DNA from: Opitutaceae bacterium
GTDB taxonomy: Bacteria; Verrucomicrobiota; Verrucomicrobiia; Opitutales; Opitutaceae
Length of the DNA stretch: 64,000 bases
Direction of reading: 5' to 3'
Assembly (NCBI GenBank): GCA_030693515.1
Contig: JAUYAK010000019.1
Span: forward strand, 1-64,000
Position numbers and translations under genes: made by a program. This document shows, one piece after another, positions 10,236-10,705 of the stretch; position 1 is the stretch's first letter; each line of letters starts with the position of its first letter. Below the pieces are notes generated by a model. That model was not told the origin of the DNA. It saw nothing but the letters and a program-made list of their open reading frames with translations, and ran no database searches.

Positions 10236-10300
10236 GCGAGAGTAGCTCAGTGGTAGAGCAGCCCCGACTATGTCGGGGTTGGTCGCGGTTCAATTCACAT
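10236..10300 (+). pseudogene. tRNA-like remnant, 5' copy, with a palindromic anticodon arm
   Basis: The acceptor-like GCGAGAG, T8-A9 and an intact D arm (GCTC...GAGC) match tRNA structure. The anticodon arm is replaced by CCCCGAC-TAT-GTCGGGG, seven pairs around three bases (or ACTATGT as a 7-nt loop with C at position 33). The T arm (GCGGTTCAATTCACATC) cannot pair. The 3' end would run into the tRNA-Met at 10309. The same odd arm recurs at 10650-10672. Confidence 0.6.
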
Positions 10301-10308
10301 CCAATTTC

Positions 10309-10383
10309 GCCAGAGTAGCTCAGTGGTAGAGCAGAGGACTCATAAGCCTTTGGTCGCCGGTTCAACCCCGGCCTCTGGCACCA
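10309..10383 (+). tRNA. tRNA-Met (CAT anticodon)
   Basis: The acceptor stem GCCAGAG/CTCTGGC pairs perfectly, with encoded CCA at 10381-10383. D arm GCTC/GAGC, T arm GCCGG-TTCAACC-CCGGC and anticodon loop CTCATAA (CAT at 10341-10343) are canonical. The anticodon stem GAGGA/GCCTT has an A-G clash next to the loop. It could be elongator Met or the CAT-anticodon Ile tRNA; the latter cannot be excluded by eye. Confidence 0.85.
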
Positions 10384-10397
10384 AATTGGCCCGATCG

Positions 10398-10649
10398 ATG
10401 CCTTGTTCAGTTTACATGCTTCGCGGCACGACGGGCCGACACTACCTCGGCTGCACCGAGGACTTGCCCGCACGATTGGCCCAACACCAGCGCGGCCACA
10501 CGCACACGACGGCGCGGCTAGGCTTTCCGCTCGAAGTCGTTGCGATGCGGACTTTCGCGACGCGTGCGGAGGCTTTGCAGATCGAACGGCAACTCAAGGG
10601 ATGGCGCAATCCCGCCAAAGCGCGGGCATTTCTTGAGACTCGCGAGTAG
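10398..10649 (+). CDS. Small GIY-YIG endonuclease-like protein inserted among tRNA sequences
   Basis: 83 residues from ATG 10398, 14 bp after the tRNA-Met CCA end. The start CSVYMLRGTTGRHYLGCTED has the GIY-YIG pattern (VYML...HYLG), followed by RLAQHQRG with the conserved Arg. The C-terminal EALQIERQLKGWRNPAKARA carries the Glu/Lys-Trp motif of the single-domain UPF0213/YhbQ family. Such proteins are nucleases or nuclease-like and are about 80-100 residues long. The stop codon TAG at 10647-10649 is the D-arm TAG of the following tRNA-like remnant, so the gene ends inside tRNA sequence. Placement between a functional tRNA and a tRNA 3' half suggests an element that inserts at tRNA genes; activity is unproven. 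Confidence 0.75.
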   Translation: MPCSVYMLRGTTGRHYLGCTEDLPARLAQHQRGHTHTTARLGFPLEVVAMRTFATRAEALQIERQLKGWRNPAKARAFLETRE

Positions 10650-10705
10650 AGCAGCCCCGACAAAGTCGGGGTTGCTCGCCGGTTCAACCCCGGCCTCTGG
10701 CACCA
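10641..10705 (+). pseudogene. tRNA-like remnant, 3' copy, with regenerated T arm and acceptor 3' end
   Basis: It begins CGCGAG then TAGAGCAGCCCCGAC, matching the 5' remnant (10235 onwards) with 13 D-arm bases missing. The anticodon arm is CCCCGAC-AAA-GTCGGGG. From 10675 to 10705 it is nearly identical to the 3' end of tRNA-Met (TCGCCGGTTCAACC...CTCTGGCACCA). There is no 5' acceptor strand to pair with CTCTGGC, so it is not a functional tRNA. Confidence 0.7.

What the first reader, a model, noticed from the sequence alone, without database searches (positions are those of the whole stretch)
10236..10705. A tRNA-targeting GIY-YIG element bracketed by tRNA-like copies
A small GIY-YIG nuclease gene starts 14 bp after tRNA-Met and ends with a TAG that belongs to the D arm of a tRNA-like remnant, whose 3' part (T arm, acceptor, CCA) is nearly identical to tRNA-Met. 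A second remnant lies just upstream of tRNA-Met and shares CGCGAG...TAGAGCAGCCCCGAC with the downstream one, so tRNA plus nuclease are flanked by degenerate direct repeats. This resembles a homing element that inserts at a tRNA gene and restores or copies its 3' half.
Basis: partly seen in the sequence, partly recalled or inferred. Interest (0 to 1): 0.75.

Follow-up and report, generated by a model that had tools for sequence, protein, structure and literature searches.

The report
Tiny nuclease element splitting tRNA genes
A 410-base piece of DNA holding one small nuclease gene, a spare complete tRNA gene and two copies of a short hairpin sits in the middle of a bacterial tRNA gene, and look-alikes sit in many kinds of tRNA genes in two distant bacterial groups, which points to a little-noticed class of minimal mobile element.

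Summary
The native tRNA(CAT) gene is split in its anticodon arm: its 5' half (10236-10261, T1) keeps native upstream DNA, its 3' half (10672-10705, T3) lies 410 bp away. The insert carries a complete tRNA (T2), an 83-aa GIY-YIG nuclease gene and, at both junctions, a palindrome CCCCGAC-N3-GTCGGGG replacing the anticodon stem-loop. Orthologous loci without it (G040, G074, G194) show the insertion. Among the 117 best-scoring related loci examined, 80 have a same-strand tRNA within 250 nt, none an opposite-strand one. Half-tRNA copies flank the gene in 31 of 59 and 14 of 27 testable loci (shuffled controls 0). Hosts include CAT, fMet, Lys, Arg, Asn, Thr, Pro, Gly, Leu, Ala, Glu and Tyr tRNAs, in Verrucomicrobiota and, mirror-imaged, in a CPR class. 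The two commonest hairpin types follow the nuclease clade, not the tRNA. Empty, complete, broken-ORF and ORF-less states exist; three intact pairs show purifying selection. Best reading: a minimal homing-type mobile element that keeps its host's tRNA. Nuclease-driven mobility is inferred, not shown; T2 keeps the presumed target, so self-immunity is unexplained. Nearest described analogue: fungal mitochondrial mORFs.

The parts
10158..10235 (+). native upstream region of the split tRNA gene
   Evidence: window 10183-10261 aligns with the region before and into the tRNA of G194, which lacks the element, at 82% over 79 columns; global alignment of the 80 nt ending at 10237 scores 70 against 60 shuffles of mean 29.6, max 46, while the 80 nt before T2 score 31
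10236..10261 (+). T1: native 5' half (tRNA positions 1-26) of the split tRNA gene
   Evidence: positions 4-26 identical to T2; native context
10262..10278 (+). left hairpin CCCCGAC-TAT-GTCGGGG in place of the anticodon stem-loop
   Evidence: RNA fold of 10236-10300 z -2.9
10279..10293 (+). degraded start of a tRNA 3' half inside T1 (TTGGTCGCGGTTCAA)
   Evidence: read from the sequence; one search match 10253-10293
10309..10383 (+). T2: complete tRNA(CAT), found once in the draft genome
   Evidence: ARAGORN, Rfam RF00005; 47 tRNAs in the genome, 3 with CAT, this sequence once
10398..10649 (+). single-domain GIY-YIG nuclease gene, 83 aa; stop codon inside T3
   Evidence: PF01541; nearest solved relative by profile UPF0213 BH0048, E 5.7e-13; AlphaFold mean pLDDT 92.7; V5 L8 G13 R14 Y16 G18 R26 H30 E63 among the invariant positions of 12 homologues
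10647..10654 (+). T3 start: tRNA positions 19-26 (TAGAGCAG)
   Evidence: read
10655..10671 (+). right hairpin CCCCGAC-AAA-GTCGGGG in place of the anticodon stem-loop; with its flanks it folds as a 13-bp stem
   Evidence: RNA fold of 10640-10705 z -5.1, 0 of 200 shuffles as good
10672..10705 (+). T3: native 3' half (tRNA positions 42-75) of the split gene
   Evidence: 33 of 34 identical to T2; T3 and the bases after it align with tRNA position 42 onward in G194 (37 nt) and G122 (48 nt)
10262..10671 (+). whole inserted segment (410 bp) in place of tRNA positions 27-41
   Evidence: comparison with G194 and, in relatives, G177 with G074

Best explanation
A minimal tRNA-gene-specific mobile element of homing type. 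SHOWN by sequence: a segment with one GIY-YIG gene lies inside the anticodon arm of a native tRNA gene; the two native halves stay at the junctions with their anticodon stem-loop replaced by a palindrome; the segment keeps one complete tRNA next to the nuclease gene, so a tRNA found once in the assembly is not lost; relatives show empty, complete, broken-ORF and ORF-less states, and other tRNA types as hosts. INFERRED: the nuclease makes or exploits a DNA break in or near the anticodon arm (of the tRNA gene or at the hairpin), and repair using the tRNA-homologous flanks copies the element into an uninvaded allele, more rarely into a different tRNA. INFERRED: the hairpin is the element's own cis part; it takes the anticodon-arm target out of the two outer half-copies and may be the structure on which the SLX1-like nuclease acts. 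Recombination between the 34-nt 3' halves would delete the ORF and leave an intact tRNA (a T1 scar as in G122, or a clean locus), and between the 5' halves would give the shorter tRNA-ORF-T3 form.
For: Sites without the element: G133 (element) against G040 (none) aligns at -281..77 to -280..77 and 372..1806 to 42..1445 (1439 columns, 80%), a 330-bp insertion; G177 against G074: native upstream and 5' half joined to T1 (-261..-53 to -174..26), native downstream after T3; the window against G194 likewise on shorter flanks. Association: same-strand tRNA 80 of 117, opposite 0 of 117. Half-tRNA copies 31 of 59 and 14 of 27; reverse-complement controls 0 and 0, shuffled 0 of 177 and 0 of 81. Hairpin: perfect stem of at least 6 bp in 25 of 31 T3 copies (random windows of the same loci 150 of 2380), each of the 25 ending within 2 nt of the point where tRNA identity resumes. 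Arm class follows the nuclease tree: CCCCGAA 7 rows, one clade (98), in CAT, Lys and Arg tRNAs; CCCCGAC 21 rows, 3 changes against 8.6 shuffled, 0 of 500. Target clusters on the tree for CAT (5 changes against 18.6, 0 of 500) and Asn (2 against 5.8, 0 of 500). dN/dS 0.11, 0.13 and 0.12 in three intact pairs; 1.39 for L030/L034, both with an in-frame stop. ORF-less remnants L065, L075, L081, L085 and G122; arrays L050, L156, L072/L083.
Against: T2 keeps the whole anticodon arm beside the gene, with the arm sequence seen in relatives without the element, so a nuclease that simply cuts this site should cut its own host; the one locus where T2 clearly differs from the remnant is L188 in CPR (by eye). 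T2 and T3 halves are identical over the matched stretch in 23 of 31 T3 copies, unlike fungal mORFs with a foreign end; this needs local duplication or gene conversion. Hairpin stems beat shuffles of the same segment at p 0.01 or less in only 15 of 31, and 6 of 31 lack a 6-bp stem in the segment. Most rarer tRNA labels do not cluster on the protein tree, nor does the TCCCGAC class clearly (32 of 500). No same-species pair was available. Searches used a profile built from tRNA-adjacent members, and only the best loci were examined. The protein has no separate DNA-binding domain.
Confidence: 0.66

Rival explanations
1. Hairpin-directed element (a special case inside the mobile reading): the nuclease, like SLX1, recognises the palindrome when it is extruded as a hairpin or cruciform and cuts the element's own ends, not the naive tRNA gene; the tRNA-homologous ends then recombine with tRNA genes. 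T2 is safe because it has no hairpin.
For: Two hairpin classes go with nuclease clades; loop length varies while pairing is kept, and stem sequence differs between lineages; nearest folds are UPF0213 and the structure-specific nuclease SLX1; explains why T2 survives; tandem arrays.
Against: No cleavage data; does not by itself explain why the anticodon arm is lost on both sides; some CPR members carry the arms on either side of the ORF (L185, L188, by eye).
Confidence: 0.3
2. Passenger model: the insertion is moved by another enzyme (for example integrases that target the same tRNA) and the GIY-YIG gene is cargo.
For: The same tRNA is split at position 37 by what look like separate, larger insertions in G182 and G104 (no recombinase gene was looked for).
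Against: The 410-bp insert has room for no integrase; the GIY-YIG gene is what the loci of many tRNAs and lineages have in common, though they were found by searching for it; CAT and Asn targets and two hairpin classes track the nuclease clade.
Confidence: 0.1
3. Domesticated tRNA-linked function (for example an RNA-level nuclease with hairpin tRNA decoys as control), not mobility.
For: T1 and T3 may be transcribed with T2; stable RNA folds; purifying selection in intact pairs.
Against: Loci without the element, broken ORFs and ORF-less remnants; different tRNAs in different hosts; halves of the host's own tRNA at each site.
Confidence: 0.07
4. Ordinary tRNA-gene tandem duplication and decay with a chance neighbour gene.
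For: tRNA duplications are common in general (recalled).
Against: 80 of 117 same-strand against 0 of 117 opposite-strand tRNAs, hairpins at the break, hairpin class tied to nuclease clade.
Confidence: 0.02

Closest known systems
Mobile ORFs (mORFs) of fungal mitochondria (Allomyces atp6, Glomus atp6/atp9/cox2/nad3; PMC3630166, passages read)
   Same: Endonuclease ORF inserted in an essential gene, with a duplicated gene end so that one complete copy remains; the atp9 case uses a GIY-YIG enzyme; the paper attributes mobility to the endonuclease.
   Different: Protein genes in mitochondria; inserted end foreign and divergent. Here: bacterial tRNA genes, 83-aa single-domain enzyme, host-type halves, hairpins at both junctions, and in the full form a whole gene copy in the insert.
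GIY-YIG-encoding insertion sequences in rRNA genes of CPR bacteria (PMC11270868, passages read)
   Same: GIY-YIG ORFs inserted in structural RNA genes of CPR bacteria, in insertions unlike group I or II introns.
   Different: rRNA genes; the word tRNA has 0 hits in that text; the passages read mention no spare gene copy or hairpin.
SegB of T-even phages (PMC13096335, start of the abstract in a search listing; other SegB facts recalled)
   Same: A phage homing endonuclease (GIY-YIG by recall) that drives recombination near tRNA genes (by recall).
   Different: Phage, free-standing, tRNA genes not split, no hairpins (all by recall).
Integrase-type genomic islands in tRNA genes (recalled; possible local examples G182, G104)
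   Same: Insertion in the anticodon loop, with a rebuilt tRNA and a displaced half-copy.
   Different: Larger, with a site-specific recombinase (recalled); not a lone GIY-YIG ORF between hairpins.
UPF0213 single-domain GIY-YIG proteins (1zg2, 1ywl)
   Same: Same domain and similar size.
   Different: The PDB entries are named hypothetical; no role in tRNA-gene insertion is stated there.

Membership tests
GIY-YIG nuclease (PF01541) | domain match above curated cut-off with catalytic positions kept | tested here: met
   44.5 bits against 22.6; Y16, G18, R26, H30, E63 invariant in 12 homologues (which residues are catalytic is recalled)
Homing-endonuclease element | sporadic occupancy with orthologous empty sites | tested here: met
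   a GIY-YIG hit beside this tRNA in 8 of 27 family genomes that I chose to include both kinds; flank alignments
Homing-endonuclease element | cycle of intact, degenerate and lost ORFs | tested here: met
   broken ORFs L030, L034, L035, L036; ORF-less remnants L065, L075, L081, G122
Homing-endonuclease element | insertion removes the cleavage site from the invaded allele | tested here: inconclusive
   outer halves lack the anticodon arm, but T2 keeps it
Homing-endonuclease element | encoded enzyme cuts the uninvaded allele | not testable with these tools
   needs biochemistry
Fungal-type mORF | endonuclease ORF plus duplicated end of the host gene | tested here: met
   31 of 59 and 14 of 27 loci with controls 0
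Fungal-type mORF | inserted gene end is foreign to the host | tested here: not met
   T2 and T3 3' halves identical over the matched stretch in 23 of 31; 3' half as in an element-free relative of the genus for G133/G096 and G073/G132; possible exception L188
Integrase-type tRNA island | site-specific recombinase gene in the insert | tested here: not met
   the 410-bp insert holds the GIY-YIG gene and a tRNA
Group I/II intron | intron RNA match in the insert | tested here: not met
   cmscan of 9000-12000 at E up to 1 gives the tRNA and one sub-threshold plastid hit on the other strand of it

The most novel reading that the evidence does not exclude
A previously undescribed class of minimal bacterial mobile element, spread over Verrucomicrobiota and CPR bacteria, in which a single-domain GIY-YIG nuclease and an element-specific DNA hairpin are the whole mobility system: the hairpin, not the tRNA sequence, is the nuclease's cis signal, the host's tRNA halves supply the recombination homology, and a resident tRNA copy makes insertion into essential tRNA genes harmless.
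Probability: 0.3. Interest if true: 0.9.

Novelty: new variant of a known kind. Interest (0 to 1): 0.78.

Why it matters
It would mean that many small GIY-YIG genes of bacteria are one-gene mobile elements living inside tRNA genes, a bacterial counterpart of fungal mitochondrial mORFs. It offers a compact natural example of a selfish insertion with a built-in rescue copy, gives a reason for half-tRNA sequences and hairpins beside tRNA genes, and makes a function of UPF0213-like proteins directly testable.

Tried and rejected
Viral or plasmid carriage: no relative of the protein confirmed in IMG/VR (close relatives only), no hairpin-tRNA pattern there; phages 2 weak matches and plasmids 8 weak matches, all under 38% identity. 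Hairpin as a dispersed repeat: in its own genome long matches to T3 occur only at this locus; in 387 phylum genomes 10 exact matches in 5 genomes, reversed-pattern control 0, and by position all 10 lie beside GIY-YIG ORFs or their remains. Hairpin as an ordinary terminator: no T-run follows it here; 1 of 25 pattern stretches (Caulobacter, L074) looks like such a terminator and was set aside. Intron: rejected. Literature: eight searches of the held PMC library (two returned nothing) listed no paper on GIY-YIG genes inserted in bacterial tRNA genes; lists were capped at 12-30 titles.

Limits: one search took at most 30 loci of each of four searches (119 loci, 117 unique), not all listed matches. 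Its rule missed diverged remnants: L022, L030, L031 and L034 have hairpin or tRNA pieces by eye but count as without T3. Two low-scoring T3 matches (L047, L149) pass at 13-15 and are left out of the 31. In the tree of 109 proteins 44 rows had no tRNA by the 120-nt rule, some of them at contig ends; it has 78 columns and 63 of 106 inner branches open. In one search only 31 of 109 rows had a hairpin class. Of 36 protein pairs many have saturated dS; the three dN/dS values quoted are intact pairs with finite dS, and other pairs with broken or tandem copies gave 0.44-0.52. Several loci are the same contigs as loci (for example L067 and L021, L082 and L035, L086 and L036). Bacteroidota were not tested.

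Full report
OBSERVATION. A tRNA with anticodon CAT lies at 10309-10383. Fourteen bases after its CCA begins an 83-codon ORF (10398-10649) with a GIY-YIG domain. Its TAG is the TAG of TAGAGCAG in a tRNA-like remnant whose 3' half (10672-10705) equals tRNA positions 42-75 at 33 of 34 bases. Upstream, 10236-10261 equals tRNA positions 1-26 apart from the acceptor end. In both remnants the anticodon stem-loop is replaced by the same palindrome with a different loop, CCCCGAC-TAT-GTCGGGG and CCCCGAC-AAA-GTCGGGG; the pattern is far above chance in the window, and the arrangement is single-copy in the draft genome. I call the pieces T1 (5' remnant), T2 (complete tRNA) and T3 (3' remnant).

WHAT WAS INSERTED WHERE. 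Comparison with relatives lacking the element settles this. For the window, 10183-10261 aligns with the 52 bases before and the first 26 bases of the tRNA of G194 (same genus, 82%), so the DNA and 5' half before the insert are native; T3 and the bases after it align with tRNA position 42 onward (37 nt in G194, 48 nt in G122). An alignment test agrees: the 80 nt ending at 10237 score 70 against the G194 upstream (60 shuffles: mean 29.6, max 46), the 80 nt before T2 score 31. G177 (element) against G074 (none) shows the same split on longer flanks: 209 columns at 76% before the break, 609 at 75% further downstream. G133 (short form, no T1) against G040 gives 1439 columns of 80% identity running from T3 into downstream DNA and 363 columns at 74% up to and through the tRNA, with 330 bp inserted. 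In the window the insert is therefore 10262-10671, 410 bp in place of tRNA positions 27-41. G122 (same genus) has, by eye, T1 with a decayed hairpin before an intact tRNA, and no ORF by tblastn in its 3-kb locus: a scar that recombination between the two 3' halves would produce. T2 occurs once among 47 tRNAs of the genome; there are two other CAT tRNAs, one of initiator type and one more of elongator/Ile2 type (types by recall).

HOW WIDE. In 200 genomes of the family, 92 have a protein match at E 1e-3. Pooling at most 30 loci from each of four searches (family; genomes behind pattern loci; class; a CPR class) gives 119 loci, 117 unique. A same-strand tRNA lies within 250 nt in 80 of 117 (24/30, 14/29, 20/29, 22/29), an opposite-strand tRNA in 0 of 117. 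Searches used a profile of tRNA-adjacent members and best hits only, so the figures are favoured by selection; no CPR protein was in the profile. A 3'-half copy beyond the ORF is found in 31 of 59 loci with an upstream tRNA (reverse-complement control 0, shuffled 0 of 177), and a 5'-part copy before the ORF in 14 of 27 loci with a downstream tRNA (0; 0 of 81). Verrucomicrobiota mostly show tRNA-ORF-T3. The CPR class mostly shows the mirror image, 5' remnant-ORF-tRNA (tRNA downstream in 20 of 29, upstream in 5), and in 10 of 29 the ORF's stop lies inside the intact tRNA. tRNAs with a remnant include CAT, initiator Met, Lys, Arg, Asn, Thr, Pro, Gly, Leu, Ala, Glu, Gln, Ser, Tyr, Trp and Val. A scan of GTDB contigs for the hairpin in tRNA context found 25 stretches: 22 in Verrucomicrobiota records, 2 in CPR records, 1 in Caulobacter that looks like a terminator; 16 of 25 have a GIY-YIG ORF or piece within 1.2 kb. 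The isolate Rubritalea marina DSM 17716 carries tRNA, intact ORF and T3 (L080; L123).

THE HAIRPIN. Of 31 T3 copies, 25 have a perfect stem of at least 6 bp, each ending within 2 nt of the point where tRNA identity resumes (random windows 150 of 2380); against shuffles of the same short segment 15 of 31 reach p 0.01 or less. Stems differ by lineage: CCCCGAC/GTCGGGG, CCCCGAA/TTCGGGG, TCCCGAC/GTCGGGA, TCCCGCA/TGCGGGA, GTCGCC/GGCGAC and a 13-bp one at a Thr tRNA, so pairing is kept while sequence changes. The two commonest arm classes follow the nuclease tree (CCCCGAA: 7 rows, one clade at 98, in CAT, Lys and Arg tRNAs; CCCCGAC: 21 rows, 3 changes against 8.6, 0 of 500; TCCCGAC, 3 rows, not clearly: 32 of 500), whereas the flanking tRNA sequence is that of the neighbouring tRNA. 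I infer that the hairpin is element-borne. In CPR it sits in the D-loop or anticodon loop of the remnant, sometimes as a pair (L180, L186), and in L185 and L188 inverted arms flank the ORF itself (by eye). In the window T3 folds into a 13-bp stem, helped by the one base in which its 3' half differs from T2; L026 and L077 share that base.

SELECTION AND LIFE CYCLE. dN/dS is 0.11 (L027/L028), 0.13 (L021/L077) and 0.12 (L152/L156); many other pairs have saturated dS; L030/L034, each with an in-frame stop, give 1.39. Loci without the element, complete elements, stopped or frameshifted ORFs (L030, L034, L035, L036), ORF-less remnants (L065, L075, L081, L085) and tandem arrays (three ORF-T3 units in L050; four 5' halves before the tRNA in L156; 90-nt remnant repeats in L072 and L083) all occur. 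Target tRNA clusters on the protein tree for CAT (22 rows, 5 changes against 18.6, 0 of 500), Asn (6 rows, 2 against 5.8, 0 of 500) and weakly initiator Met (3 against 4.9, 2 of 500); Arg, Lys, Trp, Thr, Leu, Gln and Ser do not cluster at all (short alignment, few supported forks).

MECHANISM. Mobility into tRNA genes is strongly indicated; the chemistry is inferred. The fold is the single GIY-YIG domain of UPF0213, next SLX1, a structure-specific nuclease. Two readings fit: cutting of the uninvaded anticodon arm with repair from the element (homing), or cutting at the element's own hairpin with repair guided by tRNA homology. The main difficulty of the first is that T2 keeps the arm unchanged; the second explains that but lacks data. 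Identity of T2 and T3 halves over the matched stretch in 23 of 31 copies differs from fungal mORFs and calls for local duplication or gene conversion.

NOVELTY. mORFs in fungal mitochondria are the same idea in other genes (PMC3630166, passages). GIY-YIG insertions in CPR rRNA genes are known (PMC11270868, passages). In the held library the searches listed no paper on such elements in bacterial tRNA genes. I rate it a new variant of a known kind.

Noticed in passing
L119 and L095 (G182); L102 and G104:C156:1510-1546: Larger insertions seem to split the same tRNA(CAT) at position 37: in G182 a 1-37 fragment in native upstream context and, on another contig, an intact copy before the native downstream flank, preceded by a TGTAGAA-type motif also seen in G104. 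Possibly integrase islands using the same site.
   Followed up: partly
L117 (G117) and L118 (G015): tRNA 3' fragments (positions 24-75 and 30-75) lie about 2 kb and 3.5 kb downstream of the intact tRNA, as expected for displaced ends of larger islands.
   Followed up: no
L082 (7759-7834, oriented): A full-length tRNA-like sequence with the hairpin instead of an anticodon arm is called tRNA-Arg(gcg) by ARAGORN and has a different, still pairing acceptor stem; such remnants can be mis-annotated as tRNA genes.
   Followed up: no
L022, L026: A second, REP-like palindrome (about CTCGCGG...CTCGCGA) is inserted in T3 after the first hairpin at the same spot in two genera.
   Followed up: no
L083: The last 3' remnant has a T arm and acceptor unlike the other remnants of the array, so it may be a leftover of another allele or donor.
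   Followed up: no
L188: The intact tRNA-Ala after the ORF differs clearly from the 5' remnant before it, as if the element had brought its own tRNA from a donor.
   Followed up: no
L001 (G000:C114): The genome's other small GIY-YIG gene (154-codon open frame) has no tRNA in its 3.2-kb locus.
   Followed up: partly
own genome, among L209-L255: ARAGORN reports one tRNA of uncertain type (tRNA-??? with a four-base anticodon ttac).
   Followed up: no
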